DNA from: a virus
Virus record (IMG/VR): IMGVR_UViG_3300002132_000135
Location: 1 to 41,720 of that record
Direction: 5' to 3' (one strand)
DNA: 41,720 nt
Shown here: positions 24,806-41,580 of the stretch, piece after piece
Numbering within the stretch: position 1 is the stretch's first letter
Layout: each line of letters opens with the position of its first letter
Program-made: the position numbers and the translations under genes
The notes under the pieces: model-generated
Seen by the model: only the letters and a program-made list of their open reading frames with translations
What the model was told of the DNA's origin: nothing
Database searches by the model: none

Positions 24806-25122
24806 TGGCTATTAAACAAACCGTAGTTTTTACAAATTCAGCAGCAAGCTTTACTAGCATTGACCAAGCTTTGGCTTCAATGAATGCTGCACTTGTAGAT
24901 GTTGCGCAAAAAGAAGAACTCGATACTCGTAATGTTGCAGGCGAATTTACTGCTGATGTTTGGTTTGATTTGAGCACTCAAACAGTTACTATAAACAGAA
25001 CTTGGTTAAGTGAAGCTAATTTTAATTCTTATAAAGCAAGCTGGCCTGGAGAAGGCCCTAATAAAATTTCGTTCGAAGAAGCTGGTTGGATTTGTTCACC
25101 AGAAACTACTGAAGTAATTTAA
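24805..25122 (+). CDS. Hypothetical small protein
   Basis: A 105-residue protein starting MAIKQTVVFTNSAASF. It alternates polar and hydrophobic residues and has many Ala, Thr and Asn, resembling small virion proteins rather than enzymes. The start at 24805 has GAGGAGAA upstream and is coupled to the hydroxylase. Its end overlaps the end of the minus-strand sulfotransferase by 4 bases. Confidence 0.65.
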   Translation: MAIKQTVVFTNSAASFTSIDQALASMNAALVDVAQKEELDTRNVAGEFTADVWFDLSTQTVTINRTWLSEANFNSYKASWPGEGPNKISFEEAGWICSPETTEVI

Positions 25123-25955
25123 ACATAAAACTGATATTCTTCTATAAGATCTAATAATTTAGATTTTACCTCTTCGTAATTTACAATAGCTTTAGAATAA
25201 TCCATCTTCATATCTATTACCAGATTGTTTTCATAATCGTTTGGTAATGAATGATGCCATGATGCGTCATCTAATATTGTACTCAAAGCAGTAAATATTT
25301 TTTCGGTTGTGTTTAAATCTTCGTAATATACAACACTGCAAGTCAAGCCTTTATCGTGTATAACACTTTCTAAATTATAGATGGCTTGACTCTGTTTAAT
25401 AACTGCTCTTGCAACTTCTTCATAATCACTGATAACAACTCCGTTGGATAGATTTTCAGCATGAGTGCGCATGCTATTGTCTAGCTGCCTTACTGTGAAT
25501 TGTCTTGTTTCCTTTGCATATAAAAGACTAAGAAGCTGGTCTAAAGTATTCCTTCTTTTTGTAATCACAAAATGTCTGTCACTAAAGAATTCAATTATTT
25601 CTTTAGGTGTTTCGCTTACTTGCAAAGTACCTTTGATATGATAGTTTCTACCATTCTCTTTTTCTTGTCTTAGTACATCAAGCTTATGTAGATTTCTTTC
25701 CTTAAGATTTTTAAACATGTATGGATAAATAAAATGCATATGGATGCAATCATCATAAACCAACGGTATCATTTCAGTTGGGAATGTTTGGTTGACTCTG
25801 TGATTGGTTACAACTACACTAGAATTAAATTGCAAAAATAATTCACTATGATTTTTTATTTCTAGTAATCCGTATTTTTGCTTAACGTAGTTTGCAGTGA
25901 GCTCGTACAATACTGTACTTCTTGTTCTCGGTGGACTTAAAAAGAATGGAGACAT
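25119..25955 (-). CDS. PAPS-dependent sulfotransferase-like protein (antisense)
   Basis: A 278-residue protein and the only minus-strand gene between 9.8 and 41.7 kb. FLSPPRTRSTVLYEL (5-19) is the 5'-phosphosulfate loop and ITKRRNTLDQLLSLLY (131-146) the 3'-phosphate-binding element. It is only distantly like the sulfotransferase at 12038. The start at 25955 has GAGGG upstream and lies 9 bases from the divergent start at 25965. A minus-strand TATAAATA lies at 26108-26115 and could drive it. Confidence 0.8.
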   Translation of the reverse strand: MSPFFLSPPRTRSTVLYELTANYVKQKYGLLEIKNHSELFLQFNSSVVVTNHRVNQTFPTEMIPLVYDDCIHMHFIYPYMFKNLKERNLHKLDVLRQEKENGRNYHIKGTLQVSETPKEIIEFFSDRHFVITKRRNTLDQLLSLLYAKETRQFTVRQLDNSMRTHAENLSNGVVISDYEEVARAVIKQSQAIYNLESVIHDKGLTCSVVYYEDLNTTEKIFTALSTILDDASWHHSLPNDYENNLVIDMKMDYSKAIVNYEEVKSKLLDLIEEYQFYV

Positions 25956-25964
25956 TATACCCTC

Positions 25965-26534
25965 ATGAAACAATATATAGTGGGCCCAAAATGGGATCAA
26001 AGAGTCATTACAATTGATCCTAAGGGTGATAAAATAGGTATCGCTATGTCTGGCGGAATTGATAGCTGGGTTCTATACAACTTGTTACCAAACAAAGATA
26101 ACATAATTATTTATACCTTTGAAACACCAAGCGGTGTTGATGATGTAGAAACCGTATATAAGCTAACTGGAAGAGATGATATTATAGTGTTGCCAACTAT
26201 GCCAGAAGATCCTACGCCAGTTAAGAATGGTTTAAAAGTGCTTGTTAGAGAATATGGCTTAAACCAGCTATATACGGGCGTAAACCAAGTTCCTCATTAC
26301 AAGTACTTTCCAGAATTTCAAGAGGAAAATGAGCCACCACGTCCTTGGAGAATAGATTCTGATGTACTAATCACCCCTTTCTTACATCTGTACAAATATC
26401 ATATCATTTGGCTGGCTAAAGATCTCGGTATAGATCTATCTGGAACTCAGTCATGTACAACACAACCAGTAGGCCATTGTGGTACATGCTGGTGGTGCAG
26501 AGAGAAGCAGTGGGCCTATGACCAGCTAAAATAA
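25965..26534 (+). CDS. QueC-like PP-loop ATPase with zinc site
   Basis: A 189-residue protein. The pyrophosphatase loop SGGIDSW is at 29-35, and the C-terminus has Cys164, Cys172, Cys175 and Cys178 (QSC, HCGTCWWC), the four-cysteine zinc site of QueC (7-cyano-7-deazaguanine synthase). QueC makes preQ0 for tRNA or, in some phages, DNA deazaguanines. No FolE, QueD, QueE or transglycosylase is seen in the window, so it may act with host enzymes or on another carboxylate. It ends the accessory cluster. Confidence 0.75.
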   Translation: MKQYIVGPKWDQRVITIDPKGDKIGIAMSGGIDSWVLYNLLPNKDNIIIYTFETPSGVDDVETVYKLTGRDDIIVLPTMPEDPTPVKNGLKVLVREYGLNQLYTGVNQVPHYKYFPEFQEENEPPRPWRIDSDVLITPFLHLYKYHIIWLAKDLGIDLSGTQSCTTQPVGHCGTCWWCREKQWAYDQLK

Positions 26535-26600
26535 TTTGAACTTTTTTCTAAGCCAATGATTTGATTAGCAATTTATTTTCATTTAATTTGAAAATAACTG

Positions 26601-26629
26601 TTGACATTCACTATCAGATGATGTATAAT
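26601..26629 (+). promoter_or_regulatory. Consensus sigma70-type early promoter P5
   Basis: TTGACA, 17 bases, TATAAT. The 52 bases at 26589-26640 are identical to 28599-28650. It starts the early small-gene region. Confidence 0.92.
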
Positions 26630-26657
26630 AGCTATATAAACAAATAAAGGAACAACC

Positions 26658-27035
26658 ATGAAATACGCAATCTACCAGATCCAATTATCAGAAGCTCAGT
26701 ACGACCTTATCAACGCAAAGGGTCATATGGCAGTACCAGCTCATGTAGCTAAGATGGATATGACGATGGATTTCAGCGGTGGCAAAATCGGCGGATTGGC
26801 TTCAGACGCTTGGGACAACGGTTTCTACACTCACGTTTCTAACATCGAAGCTTCAGACATAAACCAAGTCTTTGAAATTGGCAACATTGGCCCAGAAGAC
26901 AAGATCGAACGTTTATCACGCATGTCTTCTCTTTCAGTTAGCGACGTTATCGTTGACGAAGAAGGTCAGATCGCAGTAGTAGCTCCGGTTGGTTTCGTAG
27001 CATTCTCTTTCAACCCTAAAATGGCGGTAGCATAA
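26658..27035 (+). CDS. Hypothetical early protein
   Basis: A 125-residue protein (MKYAIYQIQLSEAQYD) without recognised motif, directly behind promoter P5 with an AAAGGAA ribosome site. Predicted mixed alpha/beta. First of a block of small early genes that probably alter host functions. Confidence 0.8.
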   Translation: MKYAIYQIQLSEAQYDLINAKGHMAVPAHVAKMDMTMDFSGGKIGGLASDAWDNGFYTHVSNIEASDINQVFEIGNIGPEDKIERLSRMSSLSVSDVIVDEEGQIAVVAPVGFVAFSFNPKMAVA

Positions 27036-27036
27036 C

Positions 27037-27255
27037 ATGTTAGCATATTGTGATTACATTGCAGACACTATCAAGGTACTTCTGAAGGCCGACAGTCGTG
27101 CCTTAGAGGGCACTGGAACGGCCATACTAGATTATGTGGGTAACCCTAAGATGGATCTTCATCCTACTGAGGGTTACTTCATGTCCACTAAGAAGACCAT
27201 TCTGGTCACTGACATCAACGGTAAGGAGTACAAAATCACAATCGAAGAAGCGTGA
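27037..27255 (+). CDS. Hypothetical small protein
   Basis: A 72-residue protein starting one base after the stop of the previous gene, so read from the same transcript. It ends in a small beta hairpin (TILVTDINGKEYKITIEE). No family recognised. Confidence 0.65.
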   Translation: MLAYCDYIADTIKVLLKADSRALEGTGTAILDYVGNPKMDLHPTEGYFMSTKKTILVTDINGKEYKITIEEA

Positions 27256-27307
27256 CCAGTGTTAGCAGGTGAGTCAACAATTATTTGAAAATAACTGAAA
27301 ATAACTG

Positions 27308-27336
27308 TTGACAGCCTTATCATACTATGTTATAAT
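27308..27336 (+). promoter_or_regulatory. Consensus sigma70-type early promoter with duplicated upstream element
   Basis: TTGACA (27308-27313), 17 bases, TATAAT (27331-27336). The AT-rich upstream element GAAAATAACT occurs twice in tandem (27287-27306), unlike the other copies. Confidence 0.9.
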
Positions 27337-27371
27337 AGTCTTAACAAATCGCAATATACAGGATATAAAAT

Positions 27372-27635
27372 ATGAAAAGCCAATATGATGTTACTAAAAA
27401 CCAACTTATCGTTTCTAACATTGGTCGGAAACTGATGGATATTTCTGTTAACACTCCTATGAAAGGTTTAGATGCTGAAGGTATTGCTCGTACAAATCGT
27501 ATGAGTACTTTTGGCGACACTCTTACTCGCTTTGGTGCTCCTTGGGGTCCAAAAAATCTTGATGAAGTATTGAAGACTTCTGGTATTGGTAAAAAAGAAG
27601 CTGAAGAATTTATGAAACTTGGTTACACACAATAA
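27372..27635 (+). CDS. Hypothetical early protein
   Basis: An 87-residue protein behind its own promoter. The C-terminal half (LDEVLKTSGIGKKEAEEFMKLGY) has the look of a helix-hairpin-helix (GIGKKEAEEF), which might contact DNA. Function unknown. Confidence 0.75.
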   Translation: MKSQYDVTKNQLIVSNIGRKLMDISVNTPMKGLDAEGIARTNRMSTFGDTLTRFGAPWGPKNLDEVLKTSGIGKKEAEEFMKLGYTQ

Positions 27636-27647
27636 GAGGAAGTTCGT

Positions 27648-27836
27648 ATGGCTATGATGATGTCGGAGTTAGTATTAGAAATTCGTGAAATGCTTAATGA
27701 AGGGTATCCTGCGTTAGCAATTGCTGCAACACTAGATGTTTCTTCAGAACTTGTTTGGCGCGTTAAGGACGCAGATGGATATCCAATTCAACTTTCTGAT
27801 GAACCTCAGAAATGGGAAACAATCTATGCCGGCTGA
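27648..27836 (+). CDS. Small putative helix-turn-helix protein
   Basis: A 62-residue protein. The stretch LNEGYPALAIAATLDVSSELVWRVKDA reads like a helix-turn-helix of the AlpA/homeodomain-like type (sheltered by A-x3-L-x-V-S). It may bind DNA; no family is assigned. It overlaps the next gene by 11 bases. Confidence 0.6.
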   Translation: MAMMMSELVLEIREMLNEGYPALAIAATLDVSSELVWRVKDADGYPIQLSDEPQKWETIYAG

Positions 27837-28092
27837 AAAAATTACTTGCTATGCTGAGTCTTTTCATTATAAAGGATATGTTCTAGTTAACGACTTATAT
27901 GAAGATAGTGAAGGCTTCGATAAGAATTGCTGGATGTGGGGTAAAAAGCTAGAAGAAGACTGTGTTGACGCTGTTAACTTAGAAGGTCTAAGCAGTAATT
28001 CGTACGCGCATTTCTTCGAAGCTCATAAGAAATTCATTAAACTTGCAGATGAAAAGTTAATGAATACACTGTGGAAAGAAATTAAATGTTGA
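27826..28092 (+). CDS. Hypothetical small protein
   Basis: An 88-residue acidic protein starting MPAEKITCYAESFHYKG. The start at 27826 overlaps the previous gene by 11 bases. The end carries the -35 of the next promoter. No motif recognised. Confidence 0.65.
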   Translation: MPAEKITCYAESFHYKGYVLVNDLYEDSEGFDKNCWMWGKKLEEDCVDAVNLEGLSSNSYAHFFEAHKKFIKLADEKLMNTLWKEIKC

Positions 28093-28117
28093 CATTCGTT
28101 CTTAAATGATGTATAAT
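28089..28117 (+). promoter_or_regulatory. Consensus early promoter, chimera-like
   Basis: TTGACA (28089-28094), 17 bases, TATAAT (28112-28117). The -35 overlaps the stop codon of the previous gene. The -35 and spacer match P1 (6218-6240) and the -10 plus leader match the 28611 promoter over 37 bases. Confidence 0.92.
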
Positions 28118-28149
28118 AGCTATATAAAGTAAATCAAAGGAATATAACT

Positions 28150-28575
28150 ATGGATGTATCTATTTTCAAACTTACTCGGGATGACCTTCAAAGCTTTATT
28201 TGGGATGCTTATAAAGAAGCTTATGGCATTCGTCCACGTTTCATGGATTTTGAATCTATGTCTATGGATCAACTTCGTAAAGAAGCAGACTCTTGCGCTA
28301 ACGCGGCAGAAGCTGAGATGAAGCGTGAAGAAGAACAGCAAGAAGCAGACTTGGCTGAATTCAAATCACTTATCCAGAAGACTATTGAGCTTGGTGCTGG
28401 TGATGAAGAAACAGCTCTTCGTTGGTTGACTCAAAGCGAAGTGTTCTACCACGGGCAAGATGTTGAGCACTGGGTTTGGAACAAAGGAATCCTTTTCACT
28501 GATTATGGTCGTGAGCTTACAAAACGCTTAGCTCAAATTGTAGATTATGCTTCTTATGAAGAAGAGGCTGCATAA
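28150..28575 (+). CDS. Hypothetical early protein
   Basis: A 141-residue, mostly helical, acidic protein with a long charged helix (EAEMKREEEQQEADLAEF). It has its own strong promoter. No family recognised; typical of small T4-like early genes. Confidence 0.75.
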   Translation: MDVSIFKLTRDDLQSFIWDAYKEAYGIRPRFMDFESMSMDQLRKEADSCANAAEAEMKREEEQQEADLAEFKSLIQKTIELGAGDEETALRWLTQSEVFYHGQDVEHWVWNKGILFTDYGRELTKRLAQIVDYASYEEEAA

Positions 28576-28610
28576 TTATGAATTATTTTCAAATTAAATG
28601 AAAATAACTG

Positions 28611-28639
28611 TTGACATTCACTATCAGATGATGTATAAT
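28611..28639 (+). promoter_or_regulatory. Consensus sigma70-type early promoter P8
   Basis: TTGACA, 17 bases, TATAAT, in a 52-base exact copy of the 26589-26640 region. Confidence 0.92.
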
Positions 28640-28672
28640 AGCTATATAAAGTAAATCAAAGGAAACTACATT

Positions 28673-28957
28673 ATGAAAATTACTTCTCGCTCAACTGCCT
28701 ATTATGCAACTGTTAGAATGGTTAACGGCAAAGTAGATTACCGCGACGAACCTATCTTGGATGGTATCAAAATTGTTGTAAAAATGAACAACGAAGCTTT
28801 TGATACTGCAAATCGTAAATACGTAAAGCTTCAAGGTCGTGGCCCTCGCGCGGTTCATTCAGAAGCTCGTTACGGCAAAGGTCGACGTCGTGGCTTTGAT
28901 CAGTCTCTACCTCTTGGCTTAGCTACTCACGCTGATGTTTATGTTTACAACCGTTAA
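28673..28957 (+). CDS. Hypothetical basic early protein
   Basis: A 94-residue basic protein. Residues about 50-72 (KYVKLQGRGPRAVHSEARYGKGRRRGF) are Arg/Lys/Gly-rich and could bind nucleic acid. No family recognised. It is the first gene behind promoter P8. Confidence 0.75.
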   Translation: MKITSRSTAYYATVRMVNGKVDYRDEPILDGIKIVVKMNNEAFDTANRKYVKLQGRGPRAVHSEARYGKGRRRGFDQSLPLGLATHADVYVYNR

Positions 28958-28971
28958 TAAGGATATATCAA

Positions 28972-29100
28972 ATGACTGTTAAAAATAAAAAACAATTAGC
29001 TGCGCTAAAAGTAGCTCTTAAAAAATCCGGATTAGAATATGTTATTACTCGTACAGAGGGTGACCTCTGCCACATTAACGTTTGGATTGGAGAAGTTTAA
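28972..29100 (+). CDS. Short hypothetical protein
   Basis: A 42-residue protein (MTVKNKKQLAALKVALKKSG) with an AAGGATAT ribosome site. A basic helix is followed by a small beta hairpin. Its stop overlaps the next ATG (TAATG), which supports translation of both. Confidence 0.6.
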   Translation: MTVKNKKQLAALKVALKKSGLEYVITRTEGDLCHINVWIGEV

Positions 29101-29339
29101 TGGATATGAACGTATTGCAAAAGCTTGACAAGATGCCTATCAATGAAGCTCGGATTGCTGCAGTTGCTTTGATTGATCCGAAGAAAACTAAAAAGCTTGT
29201 CTTGAATCGTCTTGAATATGATATATCTAAAGCTTACAGTTCTGGCGAAGTGTCTCGTATTATGTGGCAAGTCTACATGTCTGGCAGCGGCTATGGCACT
29301 ATCGGATCAGCGTGGAAAAAACATTACGCTTCCGCATAA
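29100..29339 (+). CDS. Hypothetical small protein
   Basis: A 79-residue helical, basic protein (MDMNVLQKLDKMPINEAR). The ATG at 29100 is coupled to the previous stop; a TTG at 29082 in the same frame is less likely. No family recognised. Confidence 0.65.
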   Translation: MDMNVLQKLDKMPINEARIAAVALIDPKKTKKLVLNRLEYDISKAYSSGEVSRIMWQVYMSGSGYGTIGSAWKKHYASA

Positions 29340-29350
29340 GGATTAATAAA

Positions 29351-29890
29351 ATGATCAAAACACCTCAACCTATTACGTATTCTATGACTGACGAAGAAAT
29401 AGAGTATCTTAGTAAACAAGCACTTGAAATTTCTCAATGCCCTGTAAGAAGCAGAGGACGCACATATGAAGAATGCTTTAGTGCTTCGCGGGCTGGTGCT
29501 ATTTTGGAATTTGCTTTGGTACATCAAGGCGCAACTAAAAATCCAAAAGAGTTTGATCCTTTAGATCGAGACTCATATGCTTGGGATGTTATTTGGGATA
29601 ATGGTCAAACAGAAGTAAAGCGTAAAAACTTTCTATCAAACGATAACACAAAATGGTATTCATATGATGATCCAGTCTATGTTAAAACCTTTTTGAAGAA
29701 CTTAGACATTGTAGAACATTTTATTGTTGGTGATTACAAAGTATTAGAACCTAATGTGTTTGCTGTAGAATGGATGCTTGTAACCAAAGTCGGAAAATAT
29801 TTTAAAAACTATATGCAAAAAAGCCTTTACAATTCCGGACAAATGTATTATAATCATTATAATGATAAAAATTGCCAATATTTAAGATAA
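29351..29890 (+). CDS. Putative PD-(D/E)xK nuclease-like protein
   Basis: A 179-residue protein. GAILEFALVHQG (Glu53), AWDVIWDNG (Asp79 and Asp83) and TEVKRK (Glu88, Lys90) follow the order E...D...ExK of restriction-endonuclease-like folds. The fit is by eye. If right, it could cut host DNA. The start at 29351 has AAGGATT upstream. Confidence 0.5.
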   Translation: MIKTPQPITYSMTDEEIEYLSKQALEISQCPVRSRGRTYEECFSASRAGAILEFALVHQGATKNPKEFDPLDRDSYAWDVIWDNGQTEVKRKNFLSNDNTKWYSYDDPVYVKTFLKNLDIVEHFIVGDYKVLEPNVFAVEWMLVTKVGKYFKNYMQKSLYNSGQMYYNHYNDKNCQYLR

Positions 29891-29900
29891 GGACAACAAT

Positions 29901-30245
29901 ATGAAATTTGATACTGGTAAACCACCAATTAACTTGGTACCTTCATCGGCTATCATAGCATGCGCTAATGTATTTGCATTTGGTGCACAAAAATATGGTG
30001 AAAACAACTGGCGCAGGGATCTAAATAAGTTTCCAGTGTCACGCCATTTCGCATCTATTCAACGTCATATGTTAGCTTGGAATGATGGCGAAGATATTGA
30101 TCCAGAAAGCGGGTTGCCACATTTGCATCATGCTATGACTCAGCTAATGATTTTGACTGTATGTCAAGCCGAAGCTACCGCTGACGTCGATGATCGCTTT
30201 AATAAAGAAACAGACTACAATACAAGTCCAGCTAATGATAATTAA
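29901..30245 (+). CDS. dATP/dGTP diphosphohydrolase-like protein (MazG-like)
   Basis: A 114-residue all-helical protein. KYGENNWR (about 31-38), RHMLAWNDGEDIDPESGLPH (about 55-74) and HHAMTQLMIL are the signature of the DUF5664 / phage dATP/dGTP pyrophosphohydrolase family. Members hydrolyse deoxynucleoside triphosphates to monophosphates and shape the dNTP pool. In this context it might supply or exclude a base. It overlaps a short gene by 11 bases. Confidence 0.78.
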   Translation: MKFDTGKPPINLVPSSAIIACANVFAFGAQKYGENNWRRDLNKFPVSRHFASIQRHMLAWNDGEDIDPESGLPHLHHAMTQLMILTVCQAEATADVDDRFNKETDYNTSPANDN

Positions 30246-30351
30246 AATAGAAATAGAATTAGATACTAATAACCAAGCAGATTGCGATAAGATGCAAGAG
30301 CTTATACGAATCTTTGAAGAATATGATAGAGGATATGATGATGAACGTTAA
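30235..30351 (+). CDS. Short hypothetical protein
   Basis: A 38-residue acidic protein (MIIKIEIELDTNNQADC) overlapping the previous gene by 11 bases and the next by 11. Its position as a bridge between two real genes supports translation. Function unknown; it may mainly serve coupling. Confidence 0.45.
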   Translation: MIIKIEIELDTNNQADCDKMQELIRIFEEYDRGYDDER

Positions 30352-31057
30352 AGACATTCGACAGCATTTTATTAAAGAATTAAAAGCTGAACGTTTTACT
30401 ACTGATAAAACTGGACAAAAGACTATCGAGCTTCTTGGTGCATCTTTTATCGCTGACGAACCAGCTATCTTTGGTAAACCAGTTGCATCTTATATTGCTG
30501 CTGAGTTAGCTTGGTATGAATCAATGTCAACTAATATTAATGATATCAACGGGTTTGATAAGCCAGCTCCTGCTGCTTGGGAATATGCTGCTGACAAATG
30601 GGGCAATATCAACTCTAACTATGGACATCTAGTATTTGCTGACAAGTACTTCAATCAATTTGAATGTGCGTTCTCTGAATTATGGAATAACCCTGATAGT
30701 CGTCGTGCTCAAATGGTTTACAATCGTCCATCTATATGGGCCGAGTTCGATGAGGGTGGCAAGTCAGACTTCATCTGTACTAATGCGCAAACCTTCTATA
30801 TTCGTGATGGTAAACTTCATATGGTATCTCAAATGCGCTCTAACGATGTAGTATTTGGTTACAAGAATGATTATGCTTGGGCGCAATATCTTATGGGCAA
30901 GGTTGTTGCTGAATGGAATGATTTGGCAAATAAACATAACCTTTCTACATTTGCACCAGATCCTATTCAGATTATTGAACATGGTACTCTTACCTGGCAA
31001 GTGATGTCATTGCATGTGTACGCTCGCCACTTTGATCTAGTTAAAATAAATGGATAG
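30341..31057 (+). CDS. 42: dCMP hydroxymethylase-like (thymidylate synthase fold)
   Basis: A 238-residue thymidylate synthase-family protein. The catalytic cysteine is Cys146 (DFICTNAQTF), with Arg121-Arg122, RSND (166-169) and a His-x-Tyr (HVYARH) near the end. In the conserved R-S-x-D-x3-G-x3-N segment the final Asn, which thymidylate synthases use to accept dUMP, is Asp177 here. T4 dCMP hydroxymethylase has Cys148 and Asp179, the same 31-residue spacing, and a similar length (246). So the substrate should be dCMP and the product 5-hydroxymethyl-dCMP. The start at 30341 has AGAGGA upstream. A thymidylate synthase of altered type remains possible. Confidence 0.8.
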   Translation: MNVKDIRQHFIKELKAERFTTDKTGQKTIELLGASFIADEPAIFGKPVASYIAAELAWYESMSTNINDINGFDKPAPAAWEYAADKWGNINSNYGHLVFADKYFNQFECAFSELWNNPDSRRAQMVYNRPSIWAEFDEGGKSDFICTNAQTFYIRDGKLHMVSQMRSNDVVFGYKNDYAWAQYLMGKVVAEWNDLANKHNLSTFAPDPIQIIEHGTLTWQVMSLHVYARHFDLVKING

Positions 31058-31241
31058 TGTTGAAATAGAATCGCGCATGCGCGAGTTGATAAAACCTATT
31101 GATGAAGCTATTATGTATTGCGACACACGTGAAGAAATTTTAATGCTTGCCTCTGTAATGCTAACAAGGCTTAGAATAATTTACGATAACGAAATAGGCG
31201 AAGTTGGCCGCAAAGAAATGTTTAGAGGAATGACAGAATGA
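31050..31241 (+). CDS. Hypothetical small protein
   Basis: A 63-residue helical protein (MDSVEIESRMRELIKPIDEAIMYCDTREE). It overlaps the hydroxymethylase end by 8 bases and the dCMP deaminase by 4 (ATGA). No family recognised; the coupling suggests use with its neighbours. Confidence 0.65.
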   Translation: MDSVEIESRMRELIKPIDEAIMYCDTREEILMLASVMLTRLRIIYDNEIGEVGRKEMFRGMTE

Positions 31242-31795
31242 GCGATTATGAGCCTTATGACCAATATATGTCACGTATGTATAAAGAACACGAGCCTTTA
31301 TCTCTCAGCCCCCTTCTCCCGCTCCGCGGGGGCTGGAAAAACGAATCTACGACACGATGGCACAACCGCTTTATCGAAATGGCTAAAATGGTTTCTACTT
31401 GGAGTAAGGATCCTTCAAGCCAAATTGGGGCTGTTGCTATTAACGACGAACGCCGCATTCTTGCTACAGGATACAATGGATTTCCGAAAGGTATTGCCGA
31501 TACTGAAGAGCGATTAAATGACCGCGATCAAAAGTATCCTCGCATTATCCACGCCGAAATGAATGCTCTTATGAACGCGTTGTATTCTGGTGTTAGTCTT
31601 AAAGATGCCACACTTTATGTTTATGGATTACCGGTTTGTCCTTCGTGTACTAAGTGTATTATTCAAGCCGGTATCAAGCACGTGGTAATTCCTAGTGTAA
31701 ATACTGACAAAGGCAACTGGCAAGAAGTATGGGAAGAACAAAGTTTGCCAATGTTTAAAGAAAGCGGTGTACAAGTTACTATTTTGGGGTTATAA
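31238..31795 (+). CDS. dCMP deaminase with unusual N-terminal extension
   Basis: A 185-residue zinc-dependent deaminase converting dCMP to dUMP. HAEMNAL (His105, Glu107) and PVCPSC (Cys134, Cys137) are the zinc and proton-shuttle motifs; [11 protein letters not shown] marks the start of the core. About 40 extra N-terminal residues precede it, including [13 protein letters not shown], encoded by a GC-rich hairpin block at 31306-31335. It sits beside the dCMP hydroxymethylase, so both enzymes draw on dCMP. Confidence 0.9.
31306..31335 (+). repeat. GC-rich inverted repeat inside the dCMP deaminase gene
   Basis: CAGCCCCC pairs with GGGGGCTG over a 14-base loop. The block is almost all G and C in an AT-rich genome and is translated in frame as part of an unusual N-terminal extension. 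It may be a recently acquired insertion or an RNA hairpin. Confidence 0.75.
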
Positions 31796-31796
31796 T

Positions 31797-32126
31797 ATGA
31801 CATATCTGGTAACGGATAATTGCGTTAAATGTAAACATACCACATGCGTATCGGTATGTCCAGTTGATTGTTTTTATGAAGGAGAGAACTTTCTAGTAAT
31901 TAATCCAGATGAATGTATTGATTGCGGTGTATGTGTTGCTGAATGCCCTGTAGATGCTATTTACGCAGATGTAGATTTGACTGAAAATGAGCTAGTTATT
32001 TGGACTGACAGAAACACTAAATATAGTAAGATATGGCCAAACATTACTGAACAAAAAGAACCATTGCCTGACGCTGATCTTTGGGTTACTGTACCAAACA
32101 AGTTTGAAACATTCGTAGAGTCATAA
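31797..32126 (+). CDS. fdxA: Seven-iron ferredoxin ([3Fe-4S][4Fe-4S], FdxA type)
   Basis: A 109-residue ferredoxin closely matching Azotobacter-type FdI. All nine cysteines are present one residue later than in that protein: Cys9, 12, 17, 21, 25, 40, 43, 46 and 50 ([25 protein letters not shown]). The C-terminal [19 protein letters not shown] is the family's typical tail. It carries electrons at low potential. A phage-encoded copy could feed the desaturases or radical SAM enzymes of this genome. It is two bases downstream of the dCMP deaminase stop. Confidence 0.95.
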
Positions 32127-32161
32127 ATACAACTATACAATATATTATGAAAAGGTGAAAT

Positions 32162-33262
32162 ATGTCTAAAAAAATTCTTATTACTGGTATGAACAAGTTG
32201 CAATGTACGAAAGACTTCTTTCTCGATCAGCAGCTTCAAGTAGTTCCTTCACATTATTCTCTTATACGATGTCTTGAAGATATGGGCTATGAGGTAGAAC
32301 AGCGGCCTGTATCCTTAGGCGAGGACTTATCTGGCTATGATGAGGTAGTTGTTTATATCCACAGTATCCAGGCCTTCTGTCAGTTTCTGTGGGCTGGTCT
32401 ATACGCGGTTAAGGCTCGCCCAGATTGTATCTTAGCTTTTGATGATTGGCAATGGCCACAAATCTTTGGTGCTATCGAAACATATCAAGAGAAGATGGAA
32501 GCAAACGATCCAGGTATTTTCCGTGATTACCTATTTGATCTTTGGCAAGGTGCAGAAAACAGAGAGTCTGTAATATCTTATAAAGATGATTACATCGAAG
32601 CATGCAAAATCATTACTAGCCGTAGCAATCGTTTACTTGTAAGCGCATTTGACCACGGTAATCTATCACTGCTGAATCTTGGCTGGAAAGAAGAAAACGT
32701 TTATCGGTTTAATCCTAATCCTTACCACTTAAATCGTACTGAAGATAACGGTTACGGCACAGGTACTATTGCATTAGATAACTTCTTTGGCGATACTCCA
32801 GAAAAAGAAAAGAAATGGAACTTTGCTTCTCTAGTCCAAGAAAAAACCCGCAAATGGTTAAAGGCTCAGCAGCCAGAAGGTTGGAAGTGGGAAATTCAAT
32901 ACTTTGGTGCTAAACGTGGCAAGTACAAATCAGAACGTCGTACAGAACCAGAAATGGTAAAAGTATTTGGACAACAATGGGGTTGTTTGATGCCGGGTTA
33001 TTTTCACGCTGGTTCTGGTTGGTGGAGAGCCCGTCCTTTGCAAGTAGCAGATGCTGGTTCTATCCTTATTGGTGATAAAGCAGAGATGATGGTGTATTAC
33101 CAAGATGAAGCGATCGCTGGTCTTACTGTATCTGATATAGAAGCAATGAGTGACGAACAACTGGTAGCAACAGCAAAAGCACAACGTGATGCTCTTTACG
33201 CTAGCCATCCTCTTGATAAAAATGTACAACGTGAAGAATTACGAAGAGCACTAGAAGCATGA
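32162..33262 (+). CDS. GT-B-like glycosyltransferase, possibly acting on DNA
   Basis: A 366-residue protein. The N-terminal part (KILITGM, HYSLIRCLEDMGYEVEQRPVS, GYDEVVVYIHS, CILAFDDWQWP) and the C-terminal part (MPGYFHAGSGWWRARPLQVA, GSILIGDK) form two Rossmann-like halves as in GT-B enzymes. The N-terminal layout is reminiscent of T4 DNA beta-glucosyltransferase, by eye only. It is joined by ATGA to UDP-galactopyranose mutase, which would make its donor. It could glycosylate hydroxymethylated DNA or a surface glycan. Ribosome site AAAAGGTGA. Confidence 0.6.
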   Translation: MSKKILITGMNKLQCTKDFFLDQQLQVVPSHYSLIRCLEDMGYEVEQRPVSLGEDLSGYDEVVVYIHSIQAFCQFLWAGLYAVKARPDCILAFDDWQWPQIFGAIETYQEKMEANDPGIFRDYLFDLWQGAENRESVISYKDDYIEACKIITSRSNRLLVSAFDHGNLSLLNLGWKEENVYRFNPNPYHLNRTEDNGYGTGTIALDNFFGDTPEKEKKWNFASLVQEKTRKWLKAQQPEGWKWEIQYFGAKRGKYKSERRTEPEMVKVFGQQWGCLMPGYFHAGSGWWRARPLQVADAGSILIGDKAEMMVYYQDEAIAGLTVSDIEAMSDEQLVATAKAQRDALYASHPLDKNVQREELRRALEA

Positions 33263-34260
33263 AATATCTCGTAGTAGGAGCCGGGTTTTCCGGTGCAGTA
33301 ATTGCTCGTGAGCTTGCAGAAGCAGGCCACACTGTGCGGGTTGTCGAAGCCCGTAATCATGTTGCAGGTAATGCTTATGACTATGTTAATGAGCATGGTA
33401 TCAGAGTACACCAATACGGTCCTCACTTATTTCATACTAATAATAAATCGGTATATGATTGGCTTAGTAAGTTTACAGAATGGGTACCTTACCAACACAA
33501 AGTAAAAGCCCAGCTTGAAGATGGCCGGTTTGCTACTCTTCCAGTAAACCGCGAAACTAAAGATATGGTAGGAGAAGAGAATGTTCTTGATATTTTCTTC
33601 CGGCCATATACTAAGAAGATGTGGGGAATGGAACTTGACGAGCTAAATCCTGATATTATTAATCGTGTTCCTATTAGAGACGACGATAATGAATTGTATT
33701 TTCCAAACGACGAATATCAAGCTATGCCAAAAGATGGCTATACTGCTTTAGTTGAAAACATCTTAGATCATAAAAACATTCAAGTAATGTTAGAAACATC
33801 TTATGATAAAGATTGGAATTGGATGTATGATCATGTATTTAACTCTATGCCAATCGATCAATACTTTGATTTTAAACACGGTAACTTGCCTTACAGATCA
33901 ATCAGATTTACAACTGTAACTTTGCCAATCCCGCGCGCTTTACCAACTACTACTGTTAACTTTACTCACGATGGTCCACAAACCCGTGTAACTGAGTGGA
34001 AGAATATTCCATGTCACGGAGACAATAAATATAGCACAACACTCACATTTGAAGAGCCTTGCGACTACGTTGATAATAATTTTGAACGCTATTATCCAGT
34101 TAAAGATCGTGACGGCAAAAATCGTGAATTGTACGAAAAGTATAAAAATGAACAGCCAGAGAATATGAAATTTATAGGTCGTTGTGGACTGTATGCATAC
34201 TTAGATATGGACATGGCCATTAATTCAGCTCTAGCCACAGTGAGGAAATTCCTAGTATGA
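33259..34260 (+). CDS. glf: UDP-galactopyranose mutase
   Basis: A 333-residue FAD enzyme converting UDP-galactopyranose to UDP-galactofuranose. GAGFSG (8-13) binds FAD, followed by VVEARNHVAGNAYDY; GPHLFHTNN (about 54-62), FFRPYTKKMWG and the C-terminal GRCGLYAYLDMDMAI are family hallmarks. It is slightly shorter than bacterial Glf (about 370-390). It overlaps the glycosyltransferase before it and the methyltransferase after it by 4 bases each, so it probably supplies a furanose sugar donor to its neighbours. Confidence 0.95.
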   Translation: MKYLVVGAGFSGAVIARELAEAGHTVRVVEARNHVAGNAYDYVNEHGIRVHQYGPHLFHTNNKSVYDWLSKFTEWVPYQHKVKAQLEDGRFATLPVNRETKDMVGEENVLDIFFRPYTKKMWGMELDELNPDIINRVPIRDDDNELYFPNDEYQAMPKDGYTALVENILDHKNIQVMLETSYDKDWNWMYDHVFNSMPIDQYFDFKHGNLPYRSIRFTTVTLPIPRALPTTTVNFTHDGPQTRVTEWKNIPCHGDNKYSTTLTFEEPCDYVDNNFERYYPVKDRDGKNRELYEKYKNEQPENMKFIGRCGLYAYLDMDMAINSALATVRKFLV

Positions 34261-35465
34261 CCGACATTACACACGCAAGCATTGTACCTTTGATTGGCGG
34301 AGAAACAATCGCTTCACATAGAGCTTTTGGAAAACCCCCATTACATTTTATGTCATATGAAGCTTTTGCAGCTAATGATAAGCACATAGTAAATTACTAC
34401 AACAATGAAATACCTTATTACGTACTAGACAAAGGGATGTCACCACCAGCTAATGAAAGAGCTGATGTAGTAGCATCTGTTTGTCCTTGCGCTGGGTTGT
34501 CTATGATGTCACATGGATACGGTGATGATAATCCAAACAACCAATGGTTAACAGAAACAACGAAATATATTCTTGGTGACTATAAACCAAAAGTATACTG
34601 GGGCGAGAATGCTCCAGGATTTGCTGGTAAGATCGGTACAAATATTCGTAATGAGATGAGACAAATCGGCAAAGATAATGGATATACAATGAGTGTATAT
34701 CGTACTAAATCTTTATTGCATGGTGTCCCACAAGTTCGCGAACGTTCTTTCTACTTCTTTTGGGAAGGAACACAAGTACCAATCTTCAATTATTTTGAAC
34801 GTGAATACACTCCTATCGAAGATCTTATTCGTAACGTAAAATCAAATTTTCAAACACAACCAATCTGCACTAAGAAGCCATCTGATAATCCGTATTACAA
34901 ATATATCTTAGAAGAGATTCATGGTGGTCGGTCTCACGCAGAACACTCTGCTGCTATTGATCCTACATCAGCTCGTGGAGTAGATGCTTTCTCTTATATC
35001 GAAAGATCGGGGCATACATATTTACAAGTAGCTAAATGGATGGAAGCTAATGGTTTTGAAAGAGAAGTAGAAAAATGTCTGTATAAGAATGAAAAGCTAG
35101 CTAACGGTGGAAGCATTATGCGTCGTGGAGTTATTATTCCAAAAGATCGCATCGGCGCGTTTGTTGGTCACTATCCTATAATGCTTACACATCCTGACGA
35201 AGATAGGTTTATTAACTACCGCGAAGCAATGTCTATTATGGGGCTGCCAGAAGACTTCGAATTGGTCGATGCAAGTCCTAAAGTTGCTAACCATATATGC
35301 CAAAACGTACCTGTACAGACGGCCACAGACATGGCCACAGAGGTTCTGGCAGTGTTAAATAAAGAGAGAATAATGGTTGACAAAGACTACGTTTTGCAGT
35401 ATAATGGTACTAAGAGATTAGAATACGAAACCAAAATAGATACTCTGGAGGCCTACTTTTCATGA
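34257..35465 (+). CDS. C5-cytosine DNA methyltransferase-like
   Basis: A 402-residue protein with m5C methyltransferase motifs in order: motif I-like VPLIGGETIASHRAFG, motif IV VCPCAGLSMMSHG (catalytic Cys in the second PC), motif VI YWGENAPGFAG, motif VIII GVPQVRERSFYFF, and motifs IX-X RFINYREAMSIMGLPEDF with NHICQNVPVQTA. PCA replaces the usual PCQ. It should methylate or otherwise act at C5 of cytosine in DNA. It is coupled by ATGA overlaps on both sides and carries a promoter inside its 3' end. Confidence 0.88.
   Translation: MTDITHASIVPLIGGETIASHRAFGKPPLHFMSYEAFAANDKHIVNYYNNEIPYYVLDKGMSPPANERADVVASVCPCAGLSMMSHGYGDDNPNNQWLTETTKYILGDYKPKVYWGENAPGFAGKIGTNIRNEMRQIGKDNGYTMSVYRTKSLLHGVPQVRERSFYFFWEGTQVPIFNYFEREYTPIEDLIRNVKSNFQTQPICTKKPSDNPYYKYILEEIHGGRSHAEHSAAIDPTSARGVDAFSYIERSGHTYLQVAKWMEANGFEREVEKCLYKNEKLANGGSIMRRGVIIPKDRIGAFVGHYPIMLTHPDEDRFINYREAMSIMGLPEDFELVDASPKVANHICQNVPVQTATDMATEVLAVLNKERIMVDKDYVLQYNGTKRLEYETKIDTLEAYFS
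35377..35405 (+). promoter_or_regulatory. Intragenic consensus sigma70 promoter
   Basis: TTGACA (35377-35382), 17 bases, TATAAT (35400-35405) in the 3' end of the methyltransferase gene, directed at the exonuclease and glycosyltransferase genes that follow. Confidence 0.7.
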
Positions 35466-36106
35466 CCACACACTTTATTATTGACTTTGAGACTATTGGT
35501 CAAAACTCACGAGAGGTACCGGCAATTGATTGTTCGTACACAACTTTCGATTGGGCTAGATTTACTGAGAATCCATACTCTTTTAAAGAGTTAGTGCTTG
35601 GAACGCATCAGGCTAAGTTTGATATTAAAGATCAAATGGTTAATCATGGCTGTAAGTATAACGAACGCGACTTGCAATGGTGGTTAGATCAGCCGCCAGA
35701 ACTTAGGCGAAATATGAAACCATCTGCAAGTGATCTTACAGCTGGGCAGTTTATGGAAAAGCTGATTGACTATTTACGCACATCAAATAAAATCGATTAT
35801 TGGTGGTCGAGATCAAATTCGTTTGATCCAGTAATTCTGGATCGTATCGCACAGAATGCCGGTAAAACTTCTTTGCTTGGTGACTATCTTAAGTATTGGG
35901 CAGTTCGCGATACACGCACATTCATCGATGCAAAATTCGATTTTAATGTGCCAGGCGGCAAGAATGCGTTTGTTCCTGTATCTGATACTGCAAAATGGGA
36001 ATACAATTTTAAAGCGCACGATAGTAAACATGATGTTGCTGCAGATGTTTTGAGGCTACAAGCTATTGTTAGAGCAGAAGCAGATATGGAGCAAGTGGAA
36101 ATATGA
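35462..36106 (+). CDS. dexA: DexA-like 3'-5' exonuclease (DEDDh)
   Basis: A 214-residue exonuclease. Exo I is FIIDFET (Asp8, Glu10), Exo II SNSFDPVI (Asp121) and Exo III AHDSKHD (His185, Asp190), the DEDDh set. WWSRSNSFDPVILDRI closely recalls T4 DexA. T4 DexA is a non-essential 3'-5' exonuclease thought to help in DNA metabolism. Its place within the glycosyltransferase operon is notable. Confidence 0.88.
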   Translation: MTTHFIIDFETIGQNSREVPAIDCSYTTFDWARFTENPYSFKELVLGTHQAKFDIKDQMVNHGCKYNERDLQWWLDQPPELRRNMKPSASDLTAGQFMEKLIDYLRTSNKIDYWWSRSNSFDPVILDRIAQNAGKTSLLGDYLKYWAVRDTRTFIDAKFDFNVPGGKNAFVPVSDTAKWEYNFKAHDSKHDVAADVLRLQAIVRAEADMEQVEI

Positions 36107-36969
36107 AAATTGAAGTAAGCATTGATGAAATAAAAAAGCATAAGATCTTTATAGGTACACCTATGTACGGTGCCCAATGCGCTGGTACATACACTAAATC
36201 ATCTACAGATCTAGCTATGATGTGTGCAGCTAATGGAATTGGTATTCAGTTCTATTATCTCTTTAATGAAAGCTTAATTCAACGGGCACGTAACTATATC
36301 GCAGATGAATTTATGCGGTCTGATTGCACACACCTAGTGTTTATTGATGCAGACATTGGATTTAATCCTCGTGATATTCTTGGATTGTTAGCAGTAAACA
36401 TTGCTGATCCAGATAAACATAATATTGTTACTGGTCTATATCCTAAGAAAACGATCGCTTGGGAAAAAGTTTCAAAAGCTGCGAAAGCAGGCAAAGGCGA
36501 TGAAAATCCATTTGATCTAGAAGAGTACACCGCCGATTATGTTTTTAATCCAGTACAGAAATCAAGCACCATTAACCTTGGCGAACCACTAGAAGTTGCT
36601 GAAGCTGGCACTGGTTTTATGCTTATTCCACGGGCAACATTTGAAAAGTTTGCTAAAGCATATCCAGAATTAAGCTACAAACCAGATCACGTTAGAACTG
36701 ATAATTTCGATGGTACTCGTAATATTCATGCTTACTTCGACTGTATCATTGATCCAGTAACTAGAAGATATCTATCTGAAGATTATTTCTTCTGTAAGAA
36801 ATCGCGTGACGCAGGAATGCATGTTTACGCGTGTCCTTGGATGCAACTACAACATATTGGTACATATATCTTTAAGGGTAATCTTGGCAAGATTGGCCAA
36901 CTCGGTATGTCTGCAACAGCAGATAACTCTAGTCGTAAGAAAGAATATAATAAGAAAAAGAACAAATAA
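36103..36969 (+). CDS. GT-A glycosyltransferase
   Basis: A 288-residue glycosyltransferase. KIFIGTPMYG begins the fold, FIDADIGF (Asp82, Asp84) is the DxD metal site, GTGFMLIPR and SEDYFFCKKSRDAG (225-238) give the acceptor/catalytic region and QHIGTYIF (His251) the later metal ligand. The C-terminus is Lys-rich (RKKEYNKKKNK). It is the last of five ATGA-coupled genes. It may transfer the second sugar, or act on a protein or lipid. Confidence 0.82.
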   Translation: MKIEVSIDEIKKHKIFIGTPMYGAQCAGTYTKSSTDLAMMCAANGIGIQFYYLFNESLIQRARNYIADEFMRSDCTHLVFIDADIGFNPRDILGLLAVNIADPDKHNIVTGLYPKKTIAWEKVSKAAKAGKGDENPFDLEEYTADYVFNPVQKSSTINLGEPLEVAEAGTGFMLIPRATFEKFAKAYPELSYKPDHVRTDNFDGTRNIHAYFDCIIDPVTRRYLSEDYFFCKKSRDAGMHVYACPWMQLQHIGTYIFKGNLGKIGQLGMSATADNSSRKKEYNKKKNK

Positions 36970-36972
36970 ATG

Positions 36973-37012
36973 TTGACAGTAGTCAAAAACTATGTTATTA
37001 TTAATATAAATA
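36973..37012 (+). promoter_or_regulatory. Early promoter and overlapping late octamer before gene 45
   Basis: TTGACA (36973-36978), 17 bases, TATTAT (36996-37001), and a TATAAATA octamer at 37005-37012. The sliding clamp would be made both early and late; T4 also needs gp45 for late transcription. Confidence 0.7.
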
Positions 37013-37039
37013 AACAACAAGCACTAGGAGCTTTACATA

Positions 37040-37702: not shown

Positions 37703-37996
37703 ATGAAAATGAGTGAAGCACAAAACCAACAAGGCCAAGGCCAAGGCCAACAACAAGAGCCAGTACAAATCTCCTTGCAAGATATTGCAACAGTTGTACA
37801 GATGATTGATGTAGTTTCTCGGCGCGGTGCTTATGAAGGTAACGAACTAGCTGGCGTAGGTATGCTACGTAATAAGCTAGAAATCTTCCTTCGTCAGAAT
37901 GCACCAGAAGGACAACAACCTCAAGGACAAATGCCGGCAGAAGCACCAGCTAATGTACCGTCAGACGCACCAATGGCTTCTAAAGTCAAAAACTAA
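37703..37996 (+). CDS. Conserved small protein in the replication operon
   Basis: A 97-residue protein with a Gln/Gly-rich N-terminus (QNQQGQGQGQQQE), a helical core (SLQDIATVVQMIDVVSRRGAYEGNELAGVGMLRNKLEIFL) and a Pro/Ala-rich tail. The core recurs between genes 45 and 44 in marine T4-like phages as I recall. It starts right after the gene 45 stop. A second ATG at 37709 is possible. Function unknown. Confidence 0.75.
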   Translation: MKMSEAQNQQGQGQGQQQEPVQISLQDIATVVQMIDVVSRRGAYEGNELAGVGMLRNKLEIFLRQNAPEGQQPQGQMPAEAPANVPSDAPMASKVKN

Positions 37997-38048: not shown

Positions 38049-38078
38049 CTTATTCTTATATTATGATTGGTGATGATA

Positions 38079-39032
38079 ATGACAATATCCAAAAAAACAA
38101 ATGAAGTGCTCTGGGTCGAAGCTTATAGACCACAGTGTATTGATGACACCATCCTTCCTGAAAAAACTAAAGCAGCTTTTAAAAAGTTTGTTGAAGACAA
38201 AAGTATTCCTAACTTACTGCTTACTGGCGGTCCAGGTGTAGGTAAAACCACAATCGCAAAAGCTATGCTCGAAGAGCTAGGCTGCGACTATATTGTTAAG
38301 AATGGTTCTCTTAATGTAAATATCGATACTCTTCGATATGAAATCTCTACATACGCATCCTCCATGTCTTTATCTGGTGGACGTAAGTATGTTATCTTTG
38401 ATGAAGCAGACTATCTGAATGCAACATCAGTTCAACCAGCCCTCCGTAACTTTATTGAAGAATACTCTTCTAACTGTGGCTTCATCTTTACGTGTAACTT
38501 TAAAAACCGTATCATTGAGCCATTGCGTTCTCGTTTGTCTGAAGTAGATTTTACTATCGAAACTTCACAGCGTCCTAAGATGGCTATGCAATTCTTTAAA
38601 CGTGTGTGTAATGTTCTTGATAATGAAAGTGTTCCATACGAAAAGCCAGTTCTTGCTAAAGTAATTGAACGACACTTTCCCGATTTTCGTCGTGTTCTTA
38701 CTGAGCTTCAAACTTATTCTGCGTCTGGTAATATTGACGAAGGTATCTTTGTTAACTTAAAGCAAGAGTCTATGGATGAAGTATTCAAACTTCTTAAAGC
38801 TAAGAACTTCACGGGTATGCGCAAATGGGTTGCTTCTAATAGTGATCAAGATATGAATGAGATGTTCCGGCGCATTTATGATATGTCAACTGATAAAGTT
38901 GAAATGAAATCTATGCCAGGATTCGTAGTTACTCTTGCAGATTATATGTACAAAGCAAACTTTGTTGCAGATCTTGAAGTTAACATGGTTGCTTTCCTTA
39001 CTGAAGTTATGATGGAGGCTGAATACAAATGA
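38079..39032 (+). CDS. 44: Clamp loader large subunit (T4 gp44-like)
   Basis: A 317-residue AAA+ ATPase (T4 gp44 is 319). WVEAYRPQCIDDTILP starts the family fold; Walker A GGPGVGKT (50-57), Walker B VIFDEAD (105-111), and the switch region EYSSNCGFIFTCNFKNRI follow. It opens the gp45 ring with gp62. The start at 38079 is chosen for spacing to GGTG; 38073 is also possible. Confidence 0.95.
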   Translation: MTISKKTNEVLWVEAYRPQCIDDTILPEKTKAAFKKFVEDKSIPNLLLTGGPGVGKTTIAKAMLEELGCDYIVKNGSLNVNIDTLRYEISTYASSMSLSGGRKYVIFDEADYLNATSVQPALRNFIEEYSSNCGFIFTCNFKNRIIEPLRSRLSEVDFTIETSQRPKMAMQFFKRVCNVLDNESVPYEKPVLAKVIERHFPDFRRVLTELQTYSASGNIDEGIFVNLKQESMDEVFKLLKAKNFTGMRKWVASNSDQDMNEMFRRIYDMSTDKVEMKSMPGFVVTLADYMYKANFVADLEVNMVAFLTEVMMEAEYK

Positions 39033-40023: not shown

Positions 40024-40095
40024 GATAAATATATTGGATGGTCATGGTGAGCATCGTGATAATAATAAACAATATAAAATAAGGTGCTGTATGTT

Positions 40096-40500: not shown

Positions 40501-40502
40501 TT

Positions 40503-41009: not shown

Positions 41010-41010
41010 A

Positions 41011-41570: not shown

Positions 41571-41580
41571 TAAAAAACCA

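What the first reader, a model, noticed from the sequence alone, without database searches (positions are those of the whole stretch)
30341..31057. A 'thymidylate synthase' that is probably dCMP hydroxymethylase
The residue that selects the pyrimidine in this fold is Asp177 rather than Asn, in R-S-N-D-x3-G-x3-D. Asn selects dUMP in thymidylate synthases; Asp is found in T4 gp42. An automatic annotation as thymidylate synthase would miss the meaning for DNA chemistry.
Basis: partly seen in the sequence, partly recalled or inferred. Interest (0 to 1): 0.7.

Follow-up and report, generated by a model that had tools for sequence, protein, structure and literature searches.

The report
Phage enzyme making 5-hydroxymethylcytosine for DNA
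This phage gene, which automatic annotation would call thymidylate synthase, almost certainly makes 5-hydroxymethyl-dCMP like phage T4 gp42, so the phage probably builds its DNA with modified cytosine; the genes next to it suggest, but do not prove, that the cytosine is then capped with an unusual sugar, galactofuranose.

Summary
The protein at 30341-31057 is 46% identical over 98% of its length to T4 gp42. It has Asp177 where E. coli ThyA, SPbeta ThyP3, two phage Td proteins and the dUMP hydroxymethylase SPO1 gp29 have Asn. Nearly the whole T4 dCMP hydroxymethylase active site is kept, including Asp145 and Glu60 (T4 numbering), which separate it from thymidylate synthase and from RB69-type 5-hydroxy-dCMP synthase respectively. 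In a quick tree it lies outside the TS clade. The selector logic is already published, so the gene alone is a new member of a known family.

The surroundings are more interesting: dCMP deaminase, a GT-B protein whose best structural match is T4 DNA beta-glucosyltransferase, a UDP-galactopyranose mutase (Glf), and a C5-methyltransferase-like protein. Across 58 informative IMG/VR relatives this slot always holds candidate base-decorating or sugar-nucleotide genes, swapped as modules. Glf+GT pairs recur in Aeromonas and Erwinia T4-like phages that also carry gp42-type genes, and in phage C48C1 directly after a Tet/JBP dioxygenase. I infer hydroxymethylcytosine glycosylation, possibly with galactofuranose. 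No biochemistry exists for it, and 38 of 80 sampled GT loci show no Glf.

The parts
30341..31057 (+). dCMP hydroxymethylase, T4 gp42 type (Cys146 nucleophile at 30776-30778, Asp177 selector at 30869-30871)
   Evidence: 46% identity over 98% to T4 gp42, PDB 1b49 E 1.9e-60; nearly all T4dCH active-site residues kept; quick tree
29901..30245 (+). dGTP_diPhyd_N (PF18909) nucleotide pyrophosphohydrolase-like protein, usual left neighbour
   Evidence: Pfam E 2e-29; found left of the hydroxymethylase in most relatives that hold that flank
31238..31795 (+). dCMP deaminase
   Evidence: Pfam dCMP_cyt_deam_1 E 1e-20, phrog_174 E 5.7e-47
31797..32126 (+). ferredoxin-like protein, present in some relatives only; role unknown
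   Evidence: Fer4 / DUF3470, phrog_8732, locus maps
32162..33262 (+). GT-B glycosyltransferase (phrog_14998), candidate DNA hydroxymethylcytosine glycosyltransferase
   Evidence: AlphaFold model pLDDT 89; best PDB match T4 BGT, Foldseek E 1.2e-5, VIA Z 17.5; weak profile match to BGT N-terminus
33259..34260 (+). UDP-galactopyranose mutase (Glf), would supply UDP-galactofuranose
   Evidence: Pfam GLF E 7.4e-53; PDB 3hdq UGM E 2.5e-77; 4-base overlap with both neighbours
34257..35465 (+). C5-cytosine-methyltransferase-like protein, right-hand border of the swap slot; role unexplained
   Evidence: PF00145 E 7.7e-18; PC, EN, QxRxR motif residues invariant in 26 aligned sequences
35462..36106 (+). 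3'-5' exonuclease (right anchor)
   Evidence: PF16473 E 4.3e-13, phrog_255
36103..36969 (+). GT-A fold protein (phrog_1574), neighbour of gp45; role unknown
   Evidence: AlphaFold pLDDT 87 and GT-A matches; also beside gp45 in Stenotrophomonas phage DLP6
37040..37702 (+). gp45 sliding clamp (T4-like replication anchor)
   Evidence: phrog_223 E 1.4e-72
38067..39032 (+). gp44 clamp-loader subunit
   Evidence: phrog_168 E 2.2e-106

Best explanation
The gene encodes a deoxycytidylate 5-hydroxymethyltransferase of the T4 gp42 family in a T4-like phage. Cys146 attacks C6 of dCMP, Asp177 recognises and protonates the cytosine ring, methylene-tetrahydrofolate gives the one-carbon unit, and water completes it to 5-hydroxymethyl-dCMP. 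This is then phosphorylated and built into phage DNA (inferred from T4). The hydroxyl is afterwards decorated in DNA by enzymes encoded just downstream, most likely the BGT-like glycosyltransferase at 32162-33262. Shown here: family membership, active-site residues, gene order and the predicted glycosyltransferase fold. Inferred: activity, presence of hydroxymethylcytosine in this phage's DNA, and glycosylation. My confidence is about 0.95 for the hydroxymethylase, 0.75 for glycosylated hydroxymethylcytosine, and 0.4 for galactofuranose as the sugar.
For: T4 gp42 is by far the closest solved structure (E 1.9e-60 against 2e-8 or worse for other TS-fold enzymes). Of 31 T4dCH positions checked, the catalytic and substrate-contact ones (K28, E60, W82, S94, Y96, R123, R124, S144, D145, F146, C148, T149, R168, D171, F174, G175, N178, D179, H216, Y218, R220) are identical in the window; N53, R59, I81, V85 and I209 differ. 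dCMP deaminase and a BGT-like glycosyltransferase follow. In 58 IMG/VR relatives holding hydroxymethylase and a right-hand anchor, each has at least one candidate decorating module, among them AGT-, TAGT- and HMUDK_hel-type proteins. The GT, Glf, C5MT, exonuclease and GT-A genes are joined by 4-base overlaps. MetaGPA showed by selective sequencing that Asp177-type TS genes and dCMP deaminase go with modified-cytosine contigs (PMC8670742).
Against: No biochemistry on this protein or phage, and only a 41.7 kb contig is held, so gp56-type dCTPase and gp1-type kinase could not be sought. Substrate specificity is read from residues. Several cassette proteins (c26, c31, c38) have no clear Pfam function, so calling them decorating enzymes rests on position, and the list of modules was drawn up after seeing the loci. 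The locus counts include near-duplicate contigs.
Confidence: 0.9

Rival explanations
1. It is a true thymidylate synthase (dUMP to dTMP) with an atypical residue.
For: Pfam, PHROGs and NCBIfam all name it thymidylate synthase.
Against: Asp instead of Asn at 177, Asp143 and Thr147 instead of Leu143 and His147 of E. coli ThyA; outside the TS clade, SH-aLRT 98 for TS; NCBIfam scores far below every equivalog cut-off; Aeromonas Aes012 and Erwinia FBB1 carry a separate Asn-type Td besides their gp42-type gene.
Confidence: 0.02
2. It is an RB69/Mosigvirus-type 5-hydroxy-dCMP synthase, giving 5-hydroxycytosine that is then glycosylated.
For: That enzyme is also in the TS superfamily (PMC13390438), and the RB69 homologue also has Asp at the selector position.
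Against: Only about 27% identity to RB69 ORF048c against 46% to T4 gp42. RB69 lacks the folate-activating Glu60 (Phe), Lys28, Ser94, Asp145 (Glu), Asp171 (Asn) and Gly175, all kept in the window.
Confidence: 0.03
3. It is a dCMP methylase (5-methyl-dCMP), as Asn177Asp mutants of thymidylate synthase are.
For: N177D in a TS shifts it to dCMP methylation (PMC8670742).
Against: T4-specific residues beyond Asp179, including Asp145 and Ser94, are kept, and the nearest characterised enzyme hydroxymethylates. A downstream transferase of the BGT type needs a hydroxyl acceptor.
Confidence: 0.03
4. Hydroxymethylcytosine is made, but the Glf/GT pair serves another glycan (capsid, tail or host surface), or the transferase uses a pyranose donor such as UDP-glucose and Glf is incidental.
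For: 38 of 80 sampled GT14998 loci show no Glf in the held flank, 37 of them with the hydroxymethylase and C5MT present, so the family does not need a linked Glf everywhere. Of the four GT loci with a full upstream flank but no hydroxymethylase, three (L158, L160, L163) lie in contigs with neither a TS-fold gene nor Tet_JBP. Glf of an Agrobacterium T4-like phage was read as a cell-wall gene (PMC6630229).
Against: The closest fold is a DNA hydroxymethylcytosine glucosyltransferase; 33 of 37 GT loci with a full upstream flank have the hydroxymethylase just before it; in C48C1 the pair directly follows a Tet_JBP gene; in L158, L160, L161 and L163 the GT follows a nucleotide-sugar epimerase that could be GalE.
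Confidence: 0.35

Closest known systems
T4 gp42 deoxycytidylate hydroxymethylase (PDB 1b49, 1b5e)
   Same: 46% identity over 98%, nearly all active-site residues; in a T4-like phage near a BGT-type gene, as gene 42 is in T4
   Different: not assayed; different gene neighbourhood (before C5MT/gp45 rather than between gp43 and uvsX)
T4 DNA beta-glucosyltransferase (BGT), for the downstream GT
   Same: best structural match of the GT model (Z 17.5, 304 residues, 3.8 A)
   Different: only 14-15% identity; other GT-B enzymes score close behind (Z 14-16); paired with a UDP-galactopyranose mutase; catalytic Asp not located
RB69/Mosigvirus arabinosylation cluster
   Same: TS-superfamily enzyme plus sugar-nucleotide genes in one variable region; the c33/c52/c38 module of the window's relatives resembles it in kinds of domain
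   Different: RB69 makes 5-hydroxycytosine; different sugar genes
MetaGPA 5hmC carbamoyltransferase contigs (PMC8670742)
   Same: Asp177-type TS and dCMP deaminase beside a decorating enzyme
   Different: carbamoyl group rather than a sugar
UDP-galactopyranose mutases (e.g. PDB 3hdq), for Glf
   Same: Pfam GLF well above cut-off, FAD-binding GxGxxG start
   Different: lies in a phage DNA-modification neighbourhood; just under the NCBIfam equivalog cut-off

Membership tests
T4-type dCMP hydroxymethylase | Asp at the pyrimidine-selecting position (T4 Asp179) | tested here: met
   Asp177
T4-type dCMP hydroxymethylase | Cys nucleophile, Glu60, Asp145, Ser94, Tyr96 in the active site | tested here: met
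   Cys146, Glu55, Asp143, Ser92, Tyr94 (residue roles from PMC6400193)
T4-type dCMP hydroxymethylase | groups with T4 gp42, away from thymidylate synthases | tested here: met
   Quick ML tree: TS rows split off with support 98; window, T4, Aes012 and FBB1 gp42 all in the 44-row group with support 93. The careful search did not finish and the deep long branches are unsure
T4-type dCMP hydroxymethylase | forms 5-hydroxymethyl-dCMP from dCMP and methylene-THF | not testable with these tools
   needs an assay
Thymidylate synthase (ThyA) | Asn177 | tested here: not met
   Asp
dUMP hydroxymethylase (SPO1 gp29) | Asn at the selector position | tested here: not met
   SPO1 gp29 Asn194, window Asp
RB69-type 5-hydroxy-dCMP synthase | RB69-like active site, without the folate-activating Glu | tested here: not met
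   window keeps Glu55; RB69 has Phe75. Only one RB69-type sequence was compared
T4 BGT-like DNA glycosyltransferase (for 32162-33262) | GT-B fold closest to BGT | tested here: met
   Foldseek rank 1, VIA Z 17.5, on a predicted model
T4 BGT-like DNA glycosyltransferase (for 32162-33262) | catalytic Asp (BGT Asp100, from memory) | tested here: inconclusive
   invariant Asp94-Asp95-Trp96 after a strand in the N-terminal domain is a candidate, but sequence alignment does not place it
T4 BGT-like DNA glycosyltransferase (for 32162-33262) | transfers sugar to hydroxymethylcytosine in DNA | not testable with these tools
   needs an assay
UDP-galactopyranose mutase (for 33259-34260) | curated family cut-offs | tested here: inconclusive
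   Pfam GLF 179.7 bits against 26.3, met; NCBIfam TIGR00031 290.1 against 303.75, just under

The most novel reading that the evidence does not exclude
The phage coats its DNA with galactofuranosyl-5-hydroxymethylcytosine: a gp42-type hydroxymethylase, a BGT-fold transferase and a UDP-galactopyranose mutase form one module. I found a five-membered-ring hexose on DNA described in no paper of the library searched. The slot it occupies is exchanged among T4-like phages for at least six other candidate decorating modules.
Probability: 0.4. Interest if true: 0.75.

Novelty: new variant of a known kind. Interest (0 to 1): 0.5.

Why it matters
Calling this gene thymidylate synthase hides that the phage probably has modified cytosines, which would affect restriction, CRISPR cutting and sequencing chemistry. 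If the mutase-coupled transferase acts on DNA, it adds a furanose form of hexose to the known phage base sugars. The cultured Aeromonas and Erwinia relatives that carry gp42-type, GT and Glf genes make the idea directly testable. The swap slot offers a list of candidate base-decorating enzymes.

Tried and rejected
Near-identical DNA in the phage collection: none for 25000-41720. Literature for galactofuranose or UDP-galactopyranose mutase in phage DNA modification: nothing relevant in the open-access library, which is not the whole literature. Profile search of the GT family against PDB sequences: no credible match, so the BGT link rests on the fold and a weak N-terminal profile match. MAFFT alignment of GT and BGT did not align the candidate catalytic Asp. 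GT1574 (36103-36969) was considered as the main hydroxymethylcytosine transferase and set aside: in DLP6 it lies beside gp45 with no gp42 annotated nearby. C48C1 first looked like a counter-example because it has no TS-fold gene, until the gene before GT/Glf proved to be Tet_JBP; its lack of PF00145 leaves open which base that enzyme would act on. Tet_JBP was sought and not found in the other GT loci without a hydroxymethylase. One early table reverse-complemented the dCMP deaminase query by mistake; one search corrects it.

Full report
What was checked. The ORF at 30341-31057 exists as described: 238 aa, Asp177 in R-S-N-D-x3-G-x3-D, catalytic Cys146. The window is a 41,720-base IMG/VR viral record. 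T4-like genes gp45, gp44, clamp loader A and RegA follow downstream.

What the protein is. In 50,697 phage records 1,312 have a relative; T4 gp42 aligns at 45.7% identity over 98%. Against the PDB, T4 dCMP hydroxymethylase gives E 1.9e-60; the next families (two 'thymidylate synthase' entries 9iqu and 9iqc, MilA, bacterial ThyA) give 2e-8 or weaker. All three general libraries name it thymidylate synthase. In an alignment with T4 gp42, RB69 ORF048c, Microbacterium phage MillyPhilly, SPbeta ThyP3, E. coli ThyA and SPO1 gp29, the selector is Asp in the window and the first three, and Asn in the last three. The Td proteins of Aes012 and FBB1 have Asn, while their gp42-type proteins have Asp. In 160 family ORFs from the loci fetched, 158 have Asp, and the two with Asn are the ThyA and ThyP3 controls.

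Why Asp alone is not decisive, and what is. RB69-type 5-hydroxy-dCMP synthases share the Asp. Mapping T4 positions discussed in the structure paper (PMC6400193) shows Lys28, Glu60, Trp82, Ser94, Tyr96, Arg123, Arg124, Ser144, Asp145, Phe146, Cys148, Thr149, Asp171, Phe174, Asn178, Asp179, His216, Tyr218 and Arg220 all identical in the window. Asn53, Arg59, Ile81, Val85 and Ile209 differ. RB69 lacks Lys28, Glu60, Ser94, Asp145 and Asp171. The quick tree separates the thymidylate synthases (support 98) and keeps the window with T4, Aes012 and FBB1 gp42 in one group (support 93), within which the window's own sub-group is distinct from the T4 one; RB69, SPO1 and MillyPhilly sit on long branches of unsure place. 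In T4, D179N lowers kcat up to about 3600-fold (PMC6400193). The use of residue 177 to read cytosine modification from metagenomes is published (PMC8670742), so this part is not new.

The neighbourhood. Downstream are dCMP deaminase, a ferredoxin-like protein, a GT (phrog_14998, called GT14998 here), UDP-galactopyranose mutase, a C5-methyltransferase-like protein, an exonuclease and a GT-A-like protein. From the GT to the GT-A-like gene, each start overlaps the previous stop by four bases. The GT has no Pfam or PDB sequence match, but its model (pLDDT 89.4) matches T4 BGT first: Foldseek E 1.2e-5, VIA Z 17.5 over 304 residues at 3.8 A. T4 AGT-DNA complexes score about Z 15, and other GT-B enzymes Z 14-16, so the lead over the fold class is modest. 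A profile comparison also aligns the two N-termini (E 1.2e-4, probability 54%).

Relatives. Eighty IMG/VR loci with 64-77% identical hydroxymethylases were fetched. Of these, 58 hold the gene and a right-hand anchor, and in each the slot between carries at least one module from my list: GT14998+Glf (11); NTP-transferase/kinase + HAD + GT-like (11, plus 1 without the HAD gene); AGT-like + HAD/kinase + cytidylyltransferase (8); TAGT (6, two of them with an epimerase-type gene); AGT-like with an epimerase (5); c26, PALP and c31 in several arrangements (13); inositol-phosphate synthase + HMUDK_hel + c26 (3). Several labels rest on position rather than a known domain, and the list was drawn up after seeing the loci. 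Variable modification genes near gene 42 are already known in cultured Tevenvirinae (PMC8056088; PMC13390438).

The GT family on its own. Of 80 IMG/VR loci found with the GT alignment, 70 have the hydroxymethylase in the held flank and 42 have Glf. Of 37 with at least 7 kb upstream, 33 have the hydroxymethylase, 3 to 3137 bases before the GT; L158, L160, L163 and L167 do not. L158, L160 and L163 lie in contigs without any TS-fold match; the 291 kb contig of L167 has two TS-fold genes elsewhere. In L158, L160, L161 and L163 the genes before the GT read, by my own inspection of the sequences, as ThyX-like and a nucleotide-sugar epimerase; no Tet_JBP was found there. In the Aeromonas phage Aes012 and Erwinia phage FBB1, GT+Glf lie beside motA while the gp42-type gene lies elsewhere in the genome. 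In C48C1, a complete genome without a TS-fold gene or PF00145, GT+Glf directly follow a Tet_JBP dioxygenase. This coupling to a second kind of hydroxymethyl-pyrimidine maker supports a DNA role for the pair, though one genome is thin evidence.

Weighing. The hydroxymethylase is about 0.95 certain. That hydroxymethylcytosine is glycosylated is likely (0.75) from the BGT-like fold and the position. Galactofuranose (0.4) rests on Glf lying beside the GT in several lineages; against it, 38 of the 80 sampled GT loci show no Glf in the held flank. The C5MT-like protein keeps its catalytic motif residues but has no clear job in a phage with hydroxymethylcytosine. It also occurs near an Asp-type TS gene in Pseudoalteromonas phage XG4, and in cyanophage S-TIM61, whose ThyA carries Asp at the selector.

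Novelty. The gene is a new member of the T4 gp42 family. The module around it, if it works as inferred, is a new variant of T4-type cytosine glycosylation. The absence of earlier reports was checked only in the open-access library.

Noticed in passing
window 10000-24805: A run of + strand genes with radical SAM, B12-binding radical SAM, TauD dioxygenase, fatty acid desaturase, aspartyl hydroxylase-like, methyltransferase and weak sulfotransferase matches: looks like a biosynthetic cluster of unknown product.
   Followed up: partly
window 34257-35465: C5-cytosine-methyltransferase-like protein kept beside the hydroxymethylase in most relatives, with catalytic motif residues invariant; its role in a phage with modified cytosine is unexplained.
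   Followed up: partly
L186 (cyanophage S-TIM61, annotated ThyA): Asp at the selector position (RSNDMATGVPLD), so this 'ThyA' may also act on dCMP; the same phage has the C5MT-like gene nearby.
   Followed up: no
window 25965-26534: QueC-like C-terminal match (PF06508, E 1.5e-7); weakly similar ORFs lie directly after the hydroxymethylase in L054, L056, L057 and L069-L071.
   Followed up: no
L082:6564-7979 (phage C48C1): Tet_JBP dioxygenase (E 3.3e-17) directly upstream of GT+Glf in a genome without TS-fold or PF00145 genes, so it might act on thymine.
   Followed up: partly
L003, L004, L026: The swap slot holds inositol-phosphate synthase, a 5-hmdU DNA kinase helical-domain protein (PF18723) and c26: possibly a different kind of base decoration.
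   Followed up: no
L088 (OL964735.1, T4): T4 gp42 itself is labelled 'thymidylate synthase' in this T4 record.
   Followed up: no
window 4898-5656: DNA/RNA non-specific endonuclease (PF01223, E 1.4e-47).
   Followed up: no
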